Shown here: in pieces, positions 48,276-55,874 of the stretch
How positions within the stretch are numbered: position 1 is the first letter of the stretch
Layout of the letters: every line of letters begins with the position of its first letter
Assembly: GCF_013373795.3 (NCBI RefSeq)
Contig: NZ_CP088022.1
Location: 558,001-622,000, forward strand
Origin: Bradyrhizobium quebecense
Lineage (GTDB): Bacteria; Pseudomonadota; Alphaproteobacteria; Rhizobiales; Xanthobacteraceae
Direction: 5' to 3'
Length of the DNA: 64,000 nt
Notes under the pieces: generated by a model
The model's input: the letters and a program-made list of their open reading frames with translations, nothing else
Told to the model about the DNA's origin: nothing
The model's database searches: none
Program-made: the position numbers and the translations under genes

Positions 48276-49329
48276 TGGAGTCACGTTTGAAGTGCAACGA
48301 TTGATTTGAGTTTGGAGAATGCCTCGGCGGGGGTCTTGAAGTCGAGGCATTTGCGTGGGGTATCGTTGAGGCGCTGAGCGAGGCGCCTGAGGGCGGCTGC
48401 CGTGATGAACCTGAGGTCAGTTTTGCGTGGCAGAGAGCGTCGTAAGCGCCCGATGGAGTTTTCCACGCCGCCTTTTTGCCAGGGACTATGGGGATCGCAG
48501 AAGAAGGTTTGGACGCCGAGGGCGTTGTGAAGCCTGTGATGCTCGGCGAACTCGGTTCCGTTGTCGAAGCTGATGGTTTTACGGATCGCCTGTGGAAGCT
48601 TGCCGAGTTGACGGGCGATGGTCCGAGCGGTGAGGACAGCTTTCCCATCGCGTGGGTGCAGCACGATGCTGAAGCGGGTTTGTCGCTCGTGGAGAACCAG
48701 CAATCCTTGGCCATATCGCGCGAACAGCATGAAGTCGGCTTCCCAATGACCCGGCGTCCCGCGGCCTTCGACCTCGGAGGGTCGTTCATCGATCGAGCGC
48801 CGTTGTTTAATGAAGCTGGCAGGGCTGCCGCCTGGGCGTCGCCGGCGCCCTCGCCTGAGTTTATGGCGCGGCAGCAGGCGGTGCCAGTAATCCTTCTGGG
48901 CCGTACAATGATAGATGAAACGATAGATTGACTCGTGGCTGATCATGACGCGACCATGTTCTCGCGCCAGTCGACCAGCGATCTGCTCCGGCGAATGTCC
49001 CATCGCAAGGCTTTTGCCGACGCAGTCCCGCAGGGCCGGCTGGCGCGCCAGCTTGAAGCGGCCATCCTGCCGTCGCCGACGTTCGGCCAATTGTTGAGCC
49101 CGGACCGGTTCGTAACCGCCCTTCCAGACCTTGGTAGGCCGCGAGTTGCGCTTCAGCTCCCGACTTATCGTCGACGTCGCGCGGTCAAGCGCAGACGCAA
49201 TATCGTTTTGAGATTTACCGCCTACATGCAGGCGGTAAATCTCAACGCGCTCTTCAAGGCTGAGCTGGCCATAACATTGTCCCATCGCCACAACACCCTA
49301 GCAGGTGTTGCACTTGTGTCGTGAACCCA
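48276..49329 (-). mobile_element. IS30-family insertion sequence
   Basis: The element is about 1.05 kb and holds one transposase gene. Its ends are imperfect inverted repeats of about 23 bp sharing TCACG-N4-AAGTGCAAC: left at 48276-48298, right at 49307-49329. Exact ends and target duplication are uncertain by one to three bases. The transposase stop codon lies within the left end. Confidence 0.8.
48281..49291 (-). CDS. IS30-family transposase
   Basis: The 336-residue protein has the N-terminal helix-turn-helix of IS30 transposases (LSLEERVEIYRLHVGGKSQNDIA). Its catalytic DDE core has D in GHWEADFM, D in ISFDNGTEF and E in WQKGGVENSIGRLRR. It catalyses cut-and-paste or copy-out transposition of its own element. 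Length and motifs are intact, so the copy may be active. It is on the minus strand, against the flanking genes. Confidence 0.92.
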   Translation of the reverse strand: MAMGQCYGQLSLEERVEIYRLHVGGKSQNDIASALDRATSTISRELKRNSRPTKVWKGGYEPVRAQQLAERRRRQDGRFKLARQPALRDCVGKSLAMGHSPEQIAGRLAREHGRVMISHESIYRFIYHCTAQKDYWHRLLPRHKLRRGRRRRPGGSPASFIKQRRSIDERPSEVEGRGTPGHWEADFMLFARYGQGLLVLHERQTRFSIVLHPRDGKAVLTARTIARQLGKLPQAIRKTISFDNGTEFAEHHRLHNALGVQTFFCDPHSPWQKGGVENSIGRLRRSLPRKTDLRFITAAALRRLAQRLNDTPRKCLDFKTPAEAFSKLKSIVALQT

Positions 49330-49502
49330 AGGGACCCATTACCACGAATGGTTATTGTTGCGCGCCGCTGGAACGACGAGTCCCCTTAACAACATCCGCC
49401 GCGGAGTATGGCTCCCTGCTTTCGCAGGGACGACGGCTGTGATGAAATCAAGCGGAATGTAATCGTGGCGGCCGTAGCACGGCGCTCATATCGAGAGGCA
49501 AC

Positions 49503-50255
49503 ATGACCAACACCATCGAGGCTCCCGACGGCGGCTACCGCTTCATGCCCGGCGTCAGTCAGTATTCCTGCGGCGTCGGTGCGCTGCCCGGCTATGCCAT
49601 CGAGCGGGTCAGGTTCTCCGAACCGGTACCCTTGAGCGCGGGTTTTGAACGGATAGCCGAGATCATCAGGGACGCGGGCCGCCCGTTGACGGCGTTCGCT
49701 GCCTGCGAACTGCGTTCGCCGGCGCCGTTCACCGAGGACGGGTTCAAGGCGTTCAACGAGATCTACATCAAGACGTTGATCGCCTGGGGCGTGATGCGCG
49801 ACGGCGTCAATCCGGTGGCCCGCAGCAACGTCTGTCCAAAGCTCGATCCGCCCGCCGAGCCGTCGTTCCACGCGTTCTGCTACACGGTGCCGGCGGCGAA
49901 GGATGCACCGACGAGCTTCGTCGTCGCCGGCAGCGGCGAGTCGGTCGAGGGCAAGGCCAATTATCGCGATCATACTGTCGCGCCCGGCGACACCAGCCCG
50001 GCCGGCATCCTGGCGAAGGCCAAATTCGTGCTTGGCGAGATGGAACGCCGGATGAGCGCGTTCGGCGGCTCCTGGCGCGACACCACGGCGGTGCAGCTCT
50101 ATACAGTGCACGATGCCTATCCGGTGCTCGAAAGCGAGCTCGGCCGCCGTGGCGTGCTTCGCAATGGCCTGACCTGGCATTTCGACCGGCCGCCGGTGGT
50201 TGGATTAGACTATGAAATGGACTGCCGGCGCGTGCAACTCGAACGCGTGGTGTGA
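49503..50255 (+). CDS. CnbZ/Rid-like protein of unknown substrate
   Basis: A 250-residue soluble protein starting DGGYRFMPGVSQYSCGVGALPG, with EIIRDAGRPLTAFAACELRSPAPF. It recalls proteins annotated as 2-amino-5-chloromuconate deaminase CnbZ and seems to be made of two Rid-like halves, but I am unsure of that relationship. If right, it would deaminate an enamine/imine. That would suit the downstream oxidase and RidA genes, 124 bases away. A GAGAGG ribosome site precedes the ATG. Confidence 0.6.
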   Translation: MTNTIEAPDGGYRFMPGVSQYSCGVGALPGYAIERVRFSEPVPLSAGFERIAEIIRDAGRPLTAFAACELRSPAPFTEDGFKAFNEIYIKTLIAWGVMRDGVNPVARSNVCPKLDPPAEPSFHAFCYTVPAAKDAPTSFVVAGSGESVEGKANYRDHTVAPGDTSPAGILAKAKFVLGEMERRMSAFGGSWRDTTAVQLYTVHDAYPVLESELGRRGVLRNGLTWHFDRPPVVGLDYEMDCRRVQLERVV

Positions 50256-50379
50256 TGTATCGGTCGCGTGACGCATCAAAAGCGCGTGTGGGCCCATGTG
50301 TAAGCGCGTGCGCTTTCTTGACACGGGTCGCGTCAACCGTTTCCCTTCGCCATCGAAATCAGCGGCTGGGTGAACGCGG

Positions 50380-51972
50380 GTGCAGAACGAATCTGTGATC
50401 AGGCGGCGGGACTTGCTGGCGCTGATCGGGACCATCGCCGGCAGTTCGGCGATGTATCAGGCGATGACGAGCCTCGGCTTCGCATCCGAGTCCGCCTACA
50501 AGGGGCCACTCAAGCTCGCGGGCGACGTGAAGGGCGCTTCGGTGCTGATTCTCGGCGCGGGGCTTGCCGGCATGACGGCGGCGCTGGAACTGCGCAAGGC
50601 CGGCTACAAGGTCCAGATCCTCGAATTCAACAGCCGCGCCGGCGGCCGCAACTGGTCGATCCGCGGCGGTGACAGCTTTACCGAGCTCGGCGGCTTCAAG
50701 CAGACCTGCCAGTTCGAGCAGGGGCTCTATCTCAATCCCGGCCCGTGGCGGATTCCCTATCATCACCGCGCGCTGCTCGATTACTGCCGCCGGCTCAACG
50801 TGACGCTGGAACCCTTCATCCAGCTTAACCACAATGCCTATCTGCACGCGACGCGTGCATTCGACGGCAAGCCGCAACGCTTTCGCAGCATCAAGGCGGA
50901 CTTCCAGGGCGGAGTGTCGGAGCTGCTCGCGAAAGTCAGCCAGCAGGGCCGGCTCGACGAATTCGTCAGCAAGGAAGACCAGGAGATCCTGCTGCAGGCG
51001 CTGCGCGAGTGGGGCGCACTGGACCGCGACTACAAGTACAATGCCAATCTCCGCTCGGCCGACGTGCGCGGTTATGCACGCGATCCCGGCGGCGGCCTGA
51101 TGGGCGATCCGCTGCCCAGCGACCCGATCTCGCTGCAGGAACTGCTGCGGTCGCGGATGTGGCGCTATGTGCAGAGCTTCGCCCACTACGATTTCCAGAC
51201 CACCATGTTCCAGCCGGTCGGCGGCATGGACATGATCGGCAAGGCGTTCGCGCACGAAGTCGGCGATCTCATCCGCTATAATGCCAAAGTCACGCAGATC
51301 CAGCAGAACGGCTCCGGCGTCACCGTGAGCTATGTCGACACCGCCAGCCCATCCGCGGTGCAGCAGGCGACCGCCGACTGGTGCATCTGCACCATCCCGC
51401 TGCCGATCCTGAGCCAGCTGCCCATCGACGTCGGCGGGCCGATGAAGAATGCGATCGATTCCTTGCCCTACGCCGCCTCGGTGAAGGTCGGGCTGCAGTT
51501 CAAGCGGCGGTTCTGGGAGGAGGATGAGGCGATCTACGGCGGCATCAGCTACACCGACCTGCCGATCCGGAACATCGGCTATCCGAACTATGGTTTCAAC
51601 CGCGGCGGCCGCGGCGTCCTGCTCGGCGCCTATTTGTATGAGGGCGCCAATTCCTTCGAGTTCACGGCGATGACGCCGGCCGAGCGGGTCGCCAGCGCGG
51701 TCGAGTTCGGCGCCAAGATCCATCCGCAGTACAAAAGCGAGTTCGAGAACGGCGTCGCGGTGGCGTGGCATCGGGTGCCGTTCACGCTCGGCTGCGCCGG
51801 TGAATGGACGGAGGCCGGGCGGGCGCAGCATTACCGCAATCTCTGCCAGATCGACGGCCGCATCGCGCTGGCGGGCGAGCACGCTTCGCAACTGCCGGCC
51901 TGGCAGGAGGGCGCAATCCTGTCCGCGCTCGATGCGATTACCCGATTGCACGAACGCGTGGTGAAGACATGA
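50380..51972 (+). CDS. Tat-exported flavin monoamine/L-amino-acid oxidase family protein
   Basis: The 530-residue protein begins with a twin-arginine signal (RRRDLLALIGTIAGSSA, residues 8-24), so it should fold around FAD in the cytoplasm and be exported. The FAD fold is clear: GAGLAGMTAAL (59-69), then GGRNWSIRGG and the C-terminal RIALAGEHASQLPAWQEGAI, as in monoamine oxidases, L-amino-acid oxidases and tryptophan monooxygenase. The start is GTG at 50380. Its last codons overlap the cytochrome c gene by four bases. That coupling suggests it hands electrons to the cytochrome rather than to O2, producing an imine. Confidence 0.85.
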   Translation: MQNESVIRRRDLLALIGTIAGSSAMYQAMTSLGFASESAYKGPLKLAGDVKGASVLILGAGLAGMTAALELRKAGYKVQILEFNSRAGGRNWSIRGGDSFTELGGFKQTCQFEQGLYLNPGPWRIPYHHRALLDYCRRLNVTLEPFIQLNHNAYLHATRAFDGKPQRFRSIKADFQGGVSELLAKVSQQGRLDEFVSKEDQEILLQALREWGALDRDYKYNANLRSADVRGYARDPGGGLMGDPLPSDPISLQELLRSRMWRYVQSFAHYDFQTTMFQPVGGMDMIGKAFAHEVGDLIRYNAKVTQIQQNGSGVTVSYVDTASPSAVQQATADWCICTIPLPILSQLPIDVGGPMKNAIDSLPYAASVKVGLQFKRRFWEEDEAIYGGISYTDLPIRNIGYPNYGFNRGGRGVLLGAYLYEGANSFEFTAMTPAERVASAVEFGAKIHPQYKSEFENGVAVAWHRVPFTLGCAGEWTEAGRAQHYRNLCQIDGRIALAGEHASQLPAWQEGAILSALDAITRLHERVVKT

Positions 51973-52379
51973 TGGTGCGGACAGGAACATCGGTTATCGC
52001 GGCGCTGGCACTAGCGTCGGCGACCGCAGCCTTTGGGCAGGACAGCGGGGTGACCAAGCGCACCTTCTCTTCAGGCTACCGTTTCGTGGAGATGACCGGC
52101 GAGGAGCTGTTCGGCAATGTCTGCCAGGGCTGTCACATGCCGGATGCGACGGGCGCGAGCGGCGCCGGCACCTATCCCTCGCTCGCCGGCAACAAGAATC
52201 TCGAGACCGGCAGCTATCCGATCTACCTCGTCGTCAACGGCCGCCGCGGCATGCCGGCGTTCGGCGACATGATGACCGATGGTCAAGTCGCCGCTGTTGT
52301 GAACTATCTGCGAACGCATTTCGGCAACACCTATCAGGACGCGGTGACGACCAAGGACGTCCAGGACGCCCGCCGCTAA
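51969..52379 (+). CDS. Small periplasmic c-type cytochrome
   Basis: A 136-residue protein with signal peptide 1-23 (ending FGQ), one haem motif C52-Q-G-C55-H56 and a likely distal ligand M95 in GMPAFGDMM. This is a class I cytochrome c. The ATG at 51969 overlaps the stop of the flavin oxidase (ATGA), and ridA follows 19 bases later. It is the natural electron acceptor for the exported flavoenzyme, passing electrons to the respiratory chain. That role is inferred from gene order. Confidence 0.88.
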   Translation: MMVRTGTSVIAALALASATAAFGQDSGVTKRTFSSGYRFVEMTGEELFGNVCQGCHMPDATGASGAGTYPSLAGNKNLETGSYPIYLVVNGRRGMPAFGDMMTDGQVAAVVNYLRTHFGNTYQDAVTTKDVQDARR

Positions 52380-52398
52380 CCACTTTGGAGAGAGTTCG

Positions 52399-52887
52399 AT
52401 GAAATTCATCGGTATTGCACTGGGCGCCGCGCTGTCGGCGATGGCGACCGCTGCCTCGGCTGATGTGGTCAGGCATCCGATTCCCAACTCGACATTCCCG
52501 ATCGCGCAGGCCGTGACCGTCACCGGCAACACCACGACGGTCTATGTCAGCGGCCAGGTGCCGCCGGTCGCCAACAAGGATGCCGATCCGTCGAGCCCGC
52601 AGGCCTATGGCGACACCAAGACCCAGACCGTCGGCGTGCTCAACCGCATCAAGGCCATTCTGGAAGGTCAGGGGCTCGGCATGGGCGATGTCGTCAAGAT
52701 GCAGGTGTTCCTGGTCCACAACACGGCTGCGCCGATGGACTTCAAGGCTTTCATGGAGGGCTACACCCAGTTCTTCGGCGGTAGCCAGCCGAACCTGCCG
52801 GCGCGCTCGGTGGTCGGCGTCGCCGCGCTCGCCAATCCCGGCTTCCTGGTCGAGATCGAGGTGATTGCGGCCAAGGACGCCAAATAA
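52399..52887 (+). CDS. Exported RidA/YjgF/UK114 family protein
   Basis: The 162-residue protein has a signal peptide (1-21, ending ASA) followed by a Rid domain. The key arginine is R136 in ARSVVGVAAL and the acidic residue E152 or E154 lies in VEIEVIA, as in enamine/imine deaminases. Most RidA proteins are cytoplasmic, so the signal peptide is notable. Located directly behind an exported amine oxidase and its cytochrome, it would hydrolyse the released imine to ketone and ammonium in the periplasm. Confidence 0.85.
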   Translation: MKFIGIALGAALSAMATAASADVVRHPIPNSTFPIAQAVTVTGNTTTVYVSGQVPPVANKDADPSSPQAYGDTKTQTVGVLNRIKAILEGQGLGMGDVVKMQVFLVHNTAAPMDFKAFMEGYTQFFGGSQPNLPARSVVGVAALANPGFLVEIEVIAAKDAK

Positions 52888-53017
52888 GGACGCCAAATGG
52901 CGTGCGCGAAAGCGCGGAGCATGCGCGCGGAAATTGAAGGGCTCGCCGTCTTGCCAAAGCGCGTGCCGCCTGTCTGAATTCATCTCCAATCAGGTGGTGG
53001 AATTCTGGGAGAGCACG

Positions 53018-54436
53018 ATGTCGCACAAGGCCCGAAACATGGTTCGATCGCTGCAGATCGCGGCGGCGTTCGCTCCGGTCCTGCTCGTGTCCGGCGCCGG
53101 CGCGCAGGGACTGACCGAGCAGCAGCAATTTGCCCGCGGCATCTACCAGGAGCTGGTCGAGATCAACACGACCACCGCGACCGGCGATACCCAGAAGGCG
53201 GCGGAAGCGATGGGCGTGCGGCTGCGCGCGGCGGGCTTTCCCGAGGGCGACGTCCACGTGTTCTCGCCCGCCCCGCACAAGGGCAATCTGGTGGCACGGC
53301 TGCACGGCTCCGGTGCGCGCAAGCCGATCCTGCTGGTCGCCCATATCGACGTCGTCCCCGCCCTCCGCGAGGACTGGTCGGTCGATCCGTTCAAACTCAC
53401 CGAGCAGGACGGCTATTTCTATGGCCGCGGCTCGAGCGACGACAAATACATGGCGTCGGCCTTCATCACCAACCTGATCCGCTACAAGAAGGAGGGCTAC
53501 AAGCCGGACCGCGACATCATCGTCGCGCTCGAGACCGACGAGGAGATCCTCGATGCCAACGGTCTCGGCATGCAGTGGCTGATCAAGAACCACCGCGACC
53601 TGATCGACGCCGAGTTCGCGCTCAATGAAGGCGGCGGCGTCGGCCTGAAGAACGGCAAGGCGATCCGCAACAGCGTGCAGACCAGCGAGAAGGTCTCGAT
53701 CGGCTACCAGCTCACGGTGAAGGATCGCGGCGGGCACTCATCGCTGCCGCGCAAGGACAATGCGATCTATCGGCTCGCCGAAGGCCTGGTGCGGCTCTCC
53801 AAATACGACTTCCCGATGAATCTCAACGAGACGACGCGGATCTATTTCACCAAGACGGCCGAGGTCGACAAGTCGCATGCCGACGATATCAAGGCGATCC
53901 TGGCGCCGCAGCCTGACCCGGCGGCGCTGGCGCGATTGTCGGAGAATCCCGGCTACAACGCGCAGCTCCGCACCACCTGCGTCGCGACCATGCTGGAAGG
54001 CGGCCACGCCATCAATGCGCTACCGCAGCTGGCAACCGCCAAGGTGAATTGCCGGATTCTGCCCGGCGAGCCGGTCGAAGGCGTTCAGGCGACGATCGAG
54101 CGCGTGCTCGCCGACAAGCAGATCGAAGTGACCCCGACCGGCAAGGCCGTGTTGAGCCCGCCTTCGCCCTTGAACGAAGAGATCATGGGATCGGTCGAGA
54201 AGCTGTCGAAGGAGTTCTGGCCGAATGCCGAAATCGTCCCCGTGATGAGCACCGGCGCCACCGACGGCAGCTATCTGCGCAATGCCGGAATTCCGACCTA
54301 TGGTCACTCAGGGCTCGGCGCCGATGTCGACGACAACCGGAACCATGGCAAGGATGAGCGCGTGCTCGTAAAATCATTCTACGAGGGCGAGGAGTATCTC
54401 TATCGCCTGGTCAAGATGCTCGCCGGCGGGAAATGA
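53018..54436 (+). CDS. Exported M20-family metallopeptidase
   Basis: A 472-residue enzyme with signal peptide 1-29. The di-zinc site of M20 peptidases is visible: H109-x-D111 (AHIDVVP), D141 in RGSSDDK, the catalytic pair E175-E176 in ETDEE, and a C-terminal His in GHSGLG. The dimerisation domain lies about 215-330. It cleaves a peptide or N-acyl amino acid outside the cytoplasm. The ATG at 53018 is preceded by GGGAGAG. It could feed the neighbouring amine oxidase with free amino acids. Confidence 0.87.
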   Translation: MSHKARNMVRSLQIAAAFAPVLLVSGAGAQGLTEQQQFARGIYQELVEINTTTATGDTQKAAEAMGVRLRAAGFPEGDVHVFSPAPHKGNLVARLHGSGARKPILLVAHIDVVPALREDWSVDPFKLTEQDGYFYGRGSSDDKYMASAFITNLIRYKKEGYKPDRDIIVALETDEEILDANGLGMQWLIKNHRDLIDAEFALNEGGGVGLKNGKAIRNSVQTSEKVSIGYQLTVKDRGGHSSLPRKDNAIYRLAEGLVRLSKYDFPMNLNETTRIYFTKTAEVDKSHADDIKAILAPQPDPAALARLSENPGYNAQLRTTCVATMLEGGHAINALPQLATAKVNCRILPGEPVEGVQATIERVLADKQIEVTPTGKAVLSPPSPLNEEIMGSVEKLSKEFWPNAEIVPVMSTGATDGSYLRNAGIPTYGHSGLGADVDDNRNHGKDERVLVKSFYEGEEYLYRLVKMLAGGK

Positions 54437-55254
54437 TGGCTGACAACAAGGCAAAGATGCGGGTTGCGGTCGCCGGCCTCGGCGCGATCGGCACCGACGT
54501 CGTCAAGGCGCTCGATCAGGGCATCGAGGGCCTGACGCTGGTTGCGGTGTCGGCGAACAGTCCGGACAAGCACCGCGGCTGGATCGCCGAGCTCAAATCT
54601 GCGCCGAAGCTGGTGCCGATCGATGAGCTTGCCGAGCTCGCCGACATCGTGGTCGAGTGTGCGCCGAGCAAGCTGGTGCGCGCGATCGTGGCGCCGGTGG
54701 TCGAGCGCGGCAAGACCGCGGTCCTGCTCAGCGTCGGCGCGCTGTTGCAGAACGAGGATCTGGTCGACCTCGCGAAGGCGCATGGCGGCCAGATCATCGT
54801 GCCGACCGGCGCGCTGATCGGGCTCGATGCCGTGACTGCGGCTGCGGTCGGGACCATCCATTCGGCAAGGCTCGTGACGCGGAAGCCGGTCGCGGGCCTC
54901 ATCGGCGCGCCGCATCTGGTCGAGAACAACATCCGGATCGATGACATCACCGAGCCGCTGCGCATCTTCGAGGGCAGCGCGCGCGATGCGGCAAAGGGCT
55001 TTCCGGCCAATCTCAACGTCGCGGTGGCGCTGTCGCTCGCCGGCATCGGCCCCGATCGCACAAGGGTCGAGATCTGGGCCGATCCGACCGTGACACGCAA
55101 CACCCACCGGATCGAGGTCGATTCCGATTCCGCGCGGTTCTCGATGATGATCGAGAACATTCCCTCGGAGAACCCCAAGACCGGCCGCATCACGGCGCTA
55201 TCGGTGATCGCCTGCCTGCGCAAGCTGCGCGCGTCCTTGCGGATCGGGACGTGA
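54433..55254 (+). CDS. L-aspartate dehydrogenase (NadX type)
   Basis: The 273-residue protein has a Rossmann start VAVAGLGAIGTDVVKAL and the C-terminal domain of aspartate dehydrogenases: FPANLNVAVALSLAGIG, then ADPTVTRNTHRIEV with the family histidine. These enzymes oxidise L-aspartate to iminoaspartate with NAD(P). Iminoaspartate can enter NAD synthesis in place of the NadB product or hydrolyse to oxaloacetate. It overlaps the M20 gene by four bases and the nicotinamidase start by one base. The NAD-linked neighbour supports a role in NAD metabolism. Confidence 0.82.
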   Translation: MMADNKAKMRVAVAGLGAIGTDVVKALDQGIEGLTLVAVSANSPDKHRGWIAELKSAPKLVPIDELAELADIVVECAPSKLVRAIVAPVVERGKTAVLLSVGALLQNEDLVDLAKAHGGQIIVPTGALIGLDAVTAAAVGTIHSARLVTRKPVAGLIGAPHLVENNIRIDDITEPLRIFEGSARDAAKGFPANLNVAVALSLAGIGPDRTRVEIWADPTVTRNTHRIEVDSDSARFSMMIENIPSENPKTGRITALSVIACLRKLRASLRIGT

Positions 55255-55874
55255 TGAAGATCGGGCCCGACGATCTCTTGCTGATCATCGACGTGCAGAA
55301 CGATTTCTGCCCGGGCGGCGCGCTGGCGGTGGCCGACGGCGATGCCGTCGTGCCTGTCGTCAACCGGCTCGCCGGGCGCTTCGATCACGTCGTGCTGACC
55401 CAGGACTGGCACCCGGCAGGCCACAGCTCGTTTGCGAGCTCGCATCCAGGCGCGGCGGCGTTCTCCTCGGTCACCATGCCCTATGGGCCGCAGACGCTGT
55501 GGCCGGATCATTGCATCCAGGGCACAGTCGGCGCCGCGTTTCATCCCGACCTCGCAACCGACCGGGCCGAGCTGGTGATCCGCAAGGGGTTTCGGGCCGC
55601 GATCGATTCCTATTCGGCGTTCTGCGAGAACGACCGCAAGACACCGACCGGGCTCGCCGGCTATCTGCGCGAGCGCGGCCTCAAGCGCGTCGTGATGGCC
55701 GGGCTCGCGACGGATTTTTGCGTTCAATATTCAGCGCTCGATGCGCGGCGGCTCGGGTTCGAGACCACGGTCGTGCTGCCGGGCTGCCGCGCCATCGATC
55801 TCGGCGGTTCGCTTGCTGCCGCCACGGCGGCGATGCGCGAGGCCGGCGTGGCGCTCGTCGAGGAGATTCCCTGA
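55254..55874 (+). CDS. pncA: Nicotinamidase
   Basis: A 206-residue isochorismatase-fold hydrolase with the full nicotinamidase set: catalytic D13, K111 and C156 (GLATDFCVQ), and metal ligands D51, H53, H57 in DWHPAGHSSF. It converts nicotinamide to nicotinate and ammonia for NAD salvage. The ATG at 55254 overlaps the aspartate dehydrogenase stop (TGATG); a GTG three bases earlier is possible. Gene order with aspartate dehydrogenase joins a de novo and a salvage step. Confidence 0.9.
   Translation: MKIGPDDLLLIIDVQNDFCPGGALAVADGDAVVPVVNRLAGRFDHVVLTQDWHPAGHSSFASSHPGAAAFSSVTMPYGPQTLWPDHCIQGTVGAAFHPDLATDRAELVIRKGFRAAIDSYSAFCENDRKTPTGLAGYLRERGLKRVVMAGLATDFCVQYSALDARRLGFETTVVLPGCRAIDLGGSLAAATAAMREAGVALVEEIP

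What the first reader, a model, noticed from the sequence alone, without database searches (positions are those of the whole stretch)
50380..52887. Proposed periplasmic amine-oxidising chain: Tat flavoenzyme, cytochrome c and exported RidA
Seen: a flavin amine-oxidase-type protein with a twin-arginine signal, a one-haem cytochrome c overlapping it by four bases, and a RidA protein with a Sec-type signal 19 bases later. Known: amine and amino-acid oxidases make imines; RidA proteins hydrolyse imines/enamines; c-type cytochromes take electrons in the periplasm. Inferred: the three form one unit in which an amine is oxidised without releasing peroxide, electrons go to respiration, and RidA clears the imine. 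An exported RidA has a clear reason to exist only in such a setting. I am not aware of this exact set as a described system.
Basis: partly seen in the sequence, partly recalled or inferred. Interest (0 to 1): 0.72.

Follow-up and report, generated by a model that had tools for sequence, protein, structure and literature searches.

The report
Exported amino-acid oxidiser, cytochrome and RidA
A soil bacterium carries three neighbouring genes for exported proteins that most likely strip electrons from amino acids outside the inner membrane and clear the reactive by-product; a closely similar gene set was already described in 2016, so this is a well-supported new example and not a new system.

Summary
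In detail: Tat-signal flavoenzyme (50380-51972), one-haem cytochrome c overlapping it by 4 bases (51969-52379), Sec-signal Rid protein 19 bases on (52399-52887), in a Bradyrhizobium. The flavoenzyme belongs with L-amino acid oxidases (best solved match 2jae, 1e-92), so an amino acid, not a simple amine, is the likely substrate. The set is in print: lao-cccA-ridA of Gluconacetobacter diazotrophicus (PMC5053998), with the same roles proposed. Cytochrome use by other flavin amine oxidoreductases (PMC12224317) and imine hydrolysis by Rid3 proteins (PMC5619798) are shown elsewhere. New here: (1) of 80 relatives, 76 keep an intact cytochrome gene and 56 a Rid; 44 monohaem-linked rows lie on one side of one branch of a 61-row tree. 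(2) In 398 genomes all 25 places with this Rid type are within 5 kb of such a flavoenzyme; beside 66 other Rid ORFs only one weak, distant match was seen. (3) 23 of 25 such Rids look exported; in a genus taken to be Pseudomonas, 31 signal-less Rids accompany flavoenzymes with mostly degraded Tat signals. Most likely a periplasmic L-amino-acid dehydrogenase with its own acceptor and imine hydrolase. Activity is untested.

The parts
50380..51972 (+). LAAO-type flavoprotein amine oxidoreductase with Tat signal (RRRDLLALIG); substrate-carboxylate Arg at residue 124 (role recalled), Lys 369, Tyr 418, Trp 463, Trp 508
   Evidence: ORF; PF01593 8.7e-51; best PDB match 2jae 1e-92 over residues 46-528; conservation in 61 homologues
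51969..52379 (+). monohaem cytochrome c with Sec-like signal; CQGCH at 52122-52136
   Evidence: ORF and 4-base overlap; PF13442 7.6e-13; orthologue with intact CXXCH in 76 of 80 loci
52399..52887 (+). exported Rid protein of the Rid3 type; signal peptide about 52399-52461; catalytic Arg 136 (52804-52806)
   Evidence: PF01042 2.6e-22; best PDB matches 9bka PSPTO3006 1.2e-31 and 9bkc PFL1385 1.1e-24, both listed as Rid3 in PMC5619798; Arg 136 in 40 of 40 rows, 39 distinct
53018..54436 (+). M20-family peptidase with Sec-like start, probable fourth member of the unit in the Bradyrhizobium group
   Evidence: PF01546 1.6e-31, NF006596 623.6 bits; found in 37 of 80 related loci, in 35 of them starting less than 1.5 kb after the flavoenzyme
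49503..50255 (+). CnbZ-type deaminase just upstream; link seen only in Bradyrhizobium loci
   Evidence: NF049982 394 bits, cut-off 220; about 110-330 bases upstream in 24 of 80 loci

Best explanation
A periplasmic L-amino-acid dehydrogenase unit. The Tat-exported flavoenzyme oxidises L-amino acids to imino acids; its reduced FAD is re-oxidised in two one-electron steps by the co-encoded periplasmic cytochrome c, which passes electrons to the respiratory chain, so little peroxide is made; the Sec-exported Rid3 protein hydrolyses the imino acid to 2-oxo acid and ammonium. In Bradyrhizobium an exported M20 peptidase may supply the amino acids. Shown here: gene order, signal-like N-termini, families, catalytic residues, linkage, tree pattern, joint change of export state. 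Inferred: electron transfer to this cytochrome, imine hydrolysis by this Rid, substrate, link to respiration.
For: LAAO branch, with the carboxylate-binding Arg in 61 of 61 rows. Cytochrome gene intact in 76 of 80 relatives. In a tree of 61 rows, the 44 monohaem-linked ones lie on one side of one branch (SH-aLRT 98) and the 3 linked to a two-haem c4-like cytochrome on another (100). All 25 Rid3-type places in 24 of 398 genomes lie within 5 kb of such an enzyme, against one weak match 3.6 kb away beside 66 other Rid ORFs. 23 of 25 of these Rids look exported: 22 of 24 by script, the window's own by eye. In the genus taken to be Pseudomonas, 31 loci have a signal-less Rid, 26 of them with 3-4 charged residues in the flavoenzyme's Tat stretch; 18 have a Rid with signal, all with 0-2. 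Rid3 proteins PFL_1385 and PSPTO_3006 act on LAAO-made imines (PMC5619798, passages). Other FAOs with Tat signal and adjacent CytC mostly reduce CytC much faster than O2 (PMC12224317). G. diazotrophicus lao insertion mutants make no IAA from tryptophan (in the one tested, cccA and ridA transcripts were lower too), and cytochrome-maturation mutants are reported there to make 5% (PMC5053998). TatC and CcmE are in the host.
Against: The closest solved relative, R. opacus LAAO, is an O2-using oxidase (recalled), so the branch can use O2. No kinetics exist for this enzyme that I found. In PMC12224317 the clade-1 enzymes with c4-type cytochromes reacted only modestly with them (290-2700 per M per s) and one monohaem pair (B. 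anthina) may use both acceptors. Rid is missing in 24 of 80 loci, 3 of which end too early to tell, so it is not essential. Four second copies in Bradyrhizobium kept the flavoenzyme but only a haem-less remnant of the cytochrome gene; dereplication removed them from the tree. In 7 of 24 Rid3 genomes no cytochrome gene was found beside the enzyme. The charged-residue measure is rough: rows L155, L156 and L157, outside that genus, also score 3. The change of export state is probably one event, so the 49 loci are not independent.
Confidence: 0.7

Rival explanations
1. A periplasmic O2-using L-amino acid oxidase that makes peroxide; the cytochrome serves another step or peroxide defence.
For: Nearest solved relative is roLAAO, an oxidase by recall; PMC12224317 found that most tested Tat-bearing FAOs without CytC react fast with O2, and 14 of 61 rows here have no cytochrome found beside them.
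Against: A cytochrome is adjacent in all 44 rows of one side of the tree, and another group of 3 has a different, two-haem cytochrome; cytochrome-maturation mutants of G. diazotrophicus are reported to lose most of the pathway product.
Confidence: 0.13
2. A dedicated auxin route: tryptophan to indole-3-pyruvate in the periplasm, for talking to the plant host.
For: The G. diazotrophicus operon is tied to IAA from tryptophan (PMC5053998); its published primers encode matching peptides at matching spacing; the window is from Bradyrhizobium.
Against: The family also occurs in Pseudoxanthomonas, Sphingomonas, Chelativorans and other genera, and here sits beside a peptidase gene, which fits nitrogen scavenging from many amino acids. 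This may be one use of a general enzyme.
Confidence: 0.1
3. The substrate is not a free amino acid (for example an amine, N-methyl or opine-like compound).
For: PF01593 enzymes are diverse; the monohaem-linked rows have residues of their own, such as W123 next to R124, L372 and E500. ORFs that resemble TonB receptors by eye lie near some relatives.
Against: The arginine and tyrosine that by recall hold the carboxylate in LAAOs are kept in 61 and 60 of 61 rows.
Confidence: 0.07

Closest known systems
lao-cccA-ridA operon of Gluconacetobacter diazotrophicus PAL5 (PMC5053998, passages read)
   Same: Same three genes, same order, Tat signal on the LAAO; same division of labour proposed there; primer-encoded peptides of all three genes match ours with spacing within about one residue.
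   Different: There tied to IAA production by insertion mutants with lowered transcripts of all three genes; here also an M20 peptidase and CnbZ as neighbours; export of RidA is not discussed in the passages read.
CytC-using flavoprotein amine oxidoreductases NicA2, Pnao and relatives (PMC12224317; abstract, passages and section 14 read)
   Same: Same superfamily, Tat signal, adjacent exported monohaem or c4-type cytochrome.
   Different: Ours is in the LAAO branch; that survey began from NicA2 BLAST hits and the words 'amino acid oxidase' do not occur in its text; no Rid partner in the passages read.
Rid3 proteins PFL_1385 and PSPTO_3006 (PMC5619798, passages read; PDB 9bkc, 9bka)
   Same: Same Rid type by sequence, catalytic arginine; shown to act on imines from L-amino acid oxidase.
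   Different: 'Signal' and 'periplasm' do not occur in that paper's text; here the type mostly looks exported, and the PSPTO_3006 kind is the signal-less exception.
Periplasmic LAO1 with LAO2/RidA of Chlamydomonas (PMC10805672, passages read)
   Same: Exported LAAO with a Rid partner, oxidising external amino acids.
   Different: An alga; makes hydrogen peroxide; no cytochrome partner in the passages read.
Rhodococcus opacus LAAO (2jae)
   Same: Full-length homologue, 38% identity, same conserved residues.
   Different: O2-using oxidase by recall; no cytochrome partner known to me.

Membership tests
L-amino acid oxidase branch of PF01593 | full-length homology to LAAOs | tested here: met
   The 13 best of 103 PDB matches (1e-92 to 1.8e-33) are LAAOs or LAAO ancestors by name, save 5ts5, named 'Amine oxidase'
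L-amino acid oxidase branch of PF01593 | Arg and Tyr that bind the substrate carboxylate (roles recalled) | tested here: met
   R124 in 61 of 61, Y418 in 60 of 61 rows
L-amino acid oxidase branch of PF01593 | oxidises L-amino acids | not testable with these tools
   needs enzyme assay
CytC-using FAO dehydrogenase | Tat signal plus adjacent Sec-exported cytochrome gene | tested here: met
   signals judged without SignalP
CytC-using FAO dehydrogenase | falls in clades 1-3 of PMC12224317 | not tested
   their sequences were not held; NicA2 is not named among the 60 PDB matches shown of 103
CytC-using FAO dehydrogenase | slow with O2, fast with its CytC | not testable with these tools
   needs stopped-flow kinetics
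lao-cccA-ridA operon | three genes in this order, Tat-LAAO | tested here: met
lao-cccA-ridA operon | sequence kinship with GDI2456/2455/2454 | tested here: met
   only through peptides encoded by the six published primers (YPSHGYF/QVIHPNY, AIYQHV/NYVRSH, ASTIYL/KLGKID), at matching spacing; the full sequences were not compared
lao-cccA-ridA operon | needed for IAA from tryptophan | not testable with these tools
   needs mutant
Rid3 subfamily | nearest to PFL_1385 and PSPTO_3006, loop insertions relative to RidA, catalytic Arg | tested here: met
Rid3 subfamily | imine deaminase activity | not testable with these tools
   needs assay
Proteus-type L-amino acid deaminase | DAO-family (PF01266) membrane enzyme (recalled) | tested here: not met
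   PF01266 24.1 bits, below its 27.9 cut-off and only over residues 55-91; PF01593 174 bits

The most novel reading that the evidence does not exclude
A lineage of periplasmic L-amino-acid dehydrogenases, apart from the nicotine-type enzymes, took on its own cytochrome (a monohaem one in one clade, a two-haem c4-like one in another); and Rid3 is in essence the imine hydrolase of this enzyme family, moving with it to whichever compartment it occupies, periplasm in most lineages and probably cytosol in one Pseudomonas lineage.
Probability: 0.55. Interest if true: 0.6.

Novelty: new member of a known kind. Interest (0 to 1): 0.42.

Why it matters
It would give the Rid3 subfamily a defined physiological partner and place, extend cytochrome-coupled flavin amine oxidoreductases to amino acids, and explain why cytochrome c maturation was reported to be needed for auxin production in G. 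diazotrophicus. It also offers a natural test of oxidase versus dehydrogenase determinants: seven positions set the monohaem-linked rows apart from the others (W123, R230, L372, P395, R481, E500, H524), though at R230 and H524 the oxidase roLAAO has the same residue.

Tried and rejected
Considered a MAO/NicA2-type amine enzyme: set aside because LAAOs head the solved matches. Considered that CnbZ is a second Rid-fold protein: profile comparison gave 4% probability (E 0.009) over 37 columns and there was no PDB match at E up to 1; left open, as six requests for a structure prediction found the machine full. A promoter scan of 49300-53100 found no sigma-70-like site, with 0.7 expected. A first signal-peptide heuristic on the control Rids chose wrong ORFs at some loci and was redone by coordinates; that version in turn cut off the lipoprotein-like starts of L177 and L178, so '3 of 66 exported' is my reading of both (L177, L178, L192; L180, L218 and L223 judged false). 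Paper searches for prior art: (8 of 10 allowed); no title or abstract start in their listings states that Rid3 is exported, but only open-licence PMC papers are held, listings were cut, and I read parts of five papers.

Rows dropped before counts: the tree used 61 of 122 flavoenzyme ORFs after removing those 82% or more alike, which removed the four cytochrome-less Bradyrhizobium copies; one row (L146_3912) was set to 'mono' by hand because its cytochrome lies just upstream on the same strand; the tree is a quick search with SH-aLRT only. Of 141 Rid matches in 24 genomes, 67 places other than Rid3 were fetched, not at random (the 30 loci that the search gave, plus 37 that I picked from six genomes, four of them repeats of the first 30); 66 had a readable ORF (61 distinct), 30 with 1.5 kb and 36 with about 4 kb of flank. 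In the genus taken to be Pseudomonas 50 of the 76 matches listed were read. 'No cytochrome' means no match to my profile in the locus and no CXXCH ORF of 85 aa or more in the 1.5 kb downstream; for the 50 Pseudomonas loci the profile alone.
Full report
What is there. The window lies in a Bradyrhizobium genome (98% protein identity to strain RD5-C2 and others; own genome G000, 9.17 Mb, with one strong copy of this enzyme). The three genes are as described: flavoenzyme 50380-51972 with a twin-arginine N-terminus, cytochrome c 51969-52379 overlapping by ATGA, Rid 52399-52887 after 19 bases. On the same strand, 130 bases after Rid, follows an M20 peptidase with a Sec-like start (53018-54436), then an aspartate dehydrogenase gene overlapping it by 4 bases. 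Upstream lies a CnbZ-type deaminase gene (49503-50255). TatC and CcmE, parts of Tat export and haem attachment, are in the genome.

What the flavoenzyme is. The best solved relative is the L-amino acid oxidase of Rhodococcus opacus (organism recalled), 2jae, E 1e-92 over residues 46-528, followed by LAAO ancestors and other LAAOs; identity in the alignment is 38%. The arginine that by recall binds the substrate carboxylate is R124 here and is present in 61 of 61 dereplicated homologues; K369, W463 and W508 are also in 61 of 61 and Y418 in 60 of 61. So the likely substrate is an L-amino acid.

What the Rid is. Its best solved relatives are PSPTO3006 and PFL1385, which PMC5619798 (passages read) lists in the Rid3 subfamily and shows to lower imine trapping when L-amino acid oxidase is the source. 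Against five other Rid proteins, ten homologues of its type share loop insertions with it, and the catalytic arginine is kept in all 16 rows and in 40 of 40 rows, 39 distinct, of a wider set. [quoted passage not shown]

Linkage among close relatives. The search for related loci gave the best 80 of 214 confirmed loci. A cytochrome with CXXCH follows the flavoenzyme in 76 of 80; in the other four (L012, L013, L016, L045, second copies in Bradyrhizobium strains that also hold the full set) only a haem-less remnant is left. Rid is found in 56 of 80; of the 24 without it, L053, L057 and L077 end less than 0.8 kb after the flavoenzyme. An RR motif is present in all 78 flavoenzymes whose N-terminus is in the locus; 75 of 76 cytochromes (not L077) and 53 of 56 Rids show a hydrophobic N-terminal stretch by a simple script, whose cut point missed the other three Rids. 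M20 is found in 37 of 80.

Linkage without choosing for it. Searching 398 genomes of the phylum with the Rid alone (E up to 1e-15) gave 25 places in 24 genomes. All 25 lie within 5 kb of an LAAO-type flavoenzyme. Beside it is a monohaem cytochrome in 14 of 24 genomes, a two-haem c4-like cytochrome in 3, and none was found in 7. 23 of 25 Rids carry a Sec or lipoprotein-like start (22 of 24 by script, the window's by eye); L131-L134 are lipoprotein-like. As a control, 66 other Rid ORFs (61 distinct) of the same genomes were examined: one had a weak, partial FAD-protein match 3.6 kb away, the others none, and three look exported. The sample was not random. A narrower search within the family taken to be Pseudomonadaceae found the Rid in 10 of 99 genomes; 9 of these have the flavoenzyme beside it, and the weakest match (G749, 2.4e-21, L206) has neither flavoenzyme nor signal. 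The module is patchy: 2 of 10 genomes of the window's genus in the 398 have the Rid. Taking the flavoenzyme as query in 385 genomes of the class (E up to 1e-60) gave 19 genomes; a cytochrome is adjacent in 9 and Rid within 5 kb in 10.

Evolution. In a tree of 61 flavoenzymes the 44 rows with a monohaem cytochrome are one side of a single branch (SH-aLRT 98), the three with a c4-like cytochrome another (100), and the 14 without lie outside both (quick search without bootstrap, unrooted). An RR or KR motif is found in 60 of 61 (not L163, whose start is unsure), so export is wider than the cytochrome link. Rid occurs with all three states: with 29 of 44 monohaem rows, 3 of 3 c4 rows and 8 of 14 rows without cytochrome. 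Seven columns set the monohaem rows apart: W123, R230, L372, P395, R481, E500, H524.

Rid goes where the flavoenzyme goes. In one genus, which I take to be Pseudomonas because its short Rid is nearly identical to PSPTO3006 where one search shows it, 73 of 298 genomes have the flavoenzyme. Of 50 loci read, 31 have a Rid of PSPTO_3006 type without signal, and there the 22 residues after the flavoenzyme's RRxx hold 3-4 charged residues in 26 and 1-2 in 5; 18 have a Rid with signal, and there they hold 0-2; one has no Rid. No match to the cytochrome profile was found in the 50. This is probably a single loss of export, five cases are not clear-cut, and the charge count is a rough measure (three rows elsewhere, L155-L157, also score 3), so it is a strong pattern but one event.

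Mechanism. Most likely the flavoenzyme oxidises amino acids in the periplasm, hands electrons singly to the cytochrome, and Rid3 hydrolyses the imino acid. The electron step is shown for other members of the superfamily: rate constants with their own CytC of about 1e4 to 1e6 per M per s against 24 to about 7000 with O2 in clades 2 and 3; but the clade-1 pairs with c4-type cytochromes reacted only modestly (290-2700), and one enzyme (B. anthina) may use both (PMC12224317: abstract, passages and section 14 read). The Rid step is shown for Rid3 proteins with a snake-venom LAAO. Neither is shown for this set.

Prior art. PMC5053998 (12 passages read) describes the G. diazotrophicus operon lao-cccA-ridA, its Tat signal, conservation in Caulobacter and Xanthomonas by OperonDB, loss of IAA in two lao insertion mutants (all three transcripts were lower in the mutant tested, so the effect cannot be given to lao alone), the report that ccm mutants make 5% of wild-type IAA, and the same proposed roles. 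The six primers printed there encode peptides that match our three proteins with spacing within about one residue. PMC10805672 (passages) cites it and describes a periplasmic LAO1 with LAO2/RidA in Chlamydomonas. What I did not find in the listings of the searches made is the statement that Rid3 is largely an exported subfamily tied to this enzyme and sharing its compartment.

Verdict. A real, functionally coherent unit, a new example of a known gene set with useful new comparative support. Interest 0.42.

Noticed in passing
L012, L013, L016, L045: Second Bradyrhizobium copies of the flavoenzyme, about 90% identical in DNA to the window's, with only a haem-less remnant of the cytochrome gene; downstream are a transporter-like ORF and, in L012, L013 and L016, one that looks like a 6-pyruvoyl-tetrahydropterin synthase (by eye).
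   Followed up: partly
window 48281-49291, minus strand: IS30-family transposase gene (NF033563 247.7 bits) between the binding-protein gene and the CnbZ gene; in related loci the binding-protein gene lies nearer to the flavoenzyme, so it may be a recent insertion.
   Followed up: no
window 54433-55874: Aspartate dehydrogenase (NF009825 452.8 bits) overlapping the M20 gene by 4 bases, then a nicotinamidase-like ORF (by eye): possibly an NAD-related pair read with the unit.
   Followed up: no
L131-L134, L151, L152: The Rid partner looks like a lipoprotein, i.e. membrane-anchored, in several genera.
   Followed up: partly
L177, L178, L192: Exported, lipoprotein-like Rid proteins without a flavoenzyme match within 1.5 kb; partner unknown.
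   Followed up: partly
L128, L138, L139, L143, L148: Large ORFs that resemble TonB-dependent receptors (by eye) lie next to or between flavoenzyme and Rid.
   Followed up: no
window 49503-50255: CnbZ-type deaminase; no aminomuconate-pathway genes were recognised among the nine neighbouring ORFs scanned; kept just upstream of the flavoenzyme in 24 of 80 loci.
   Followed up: partly
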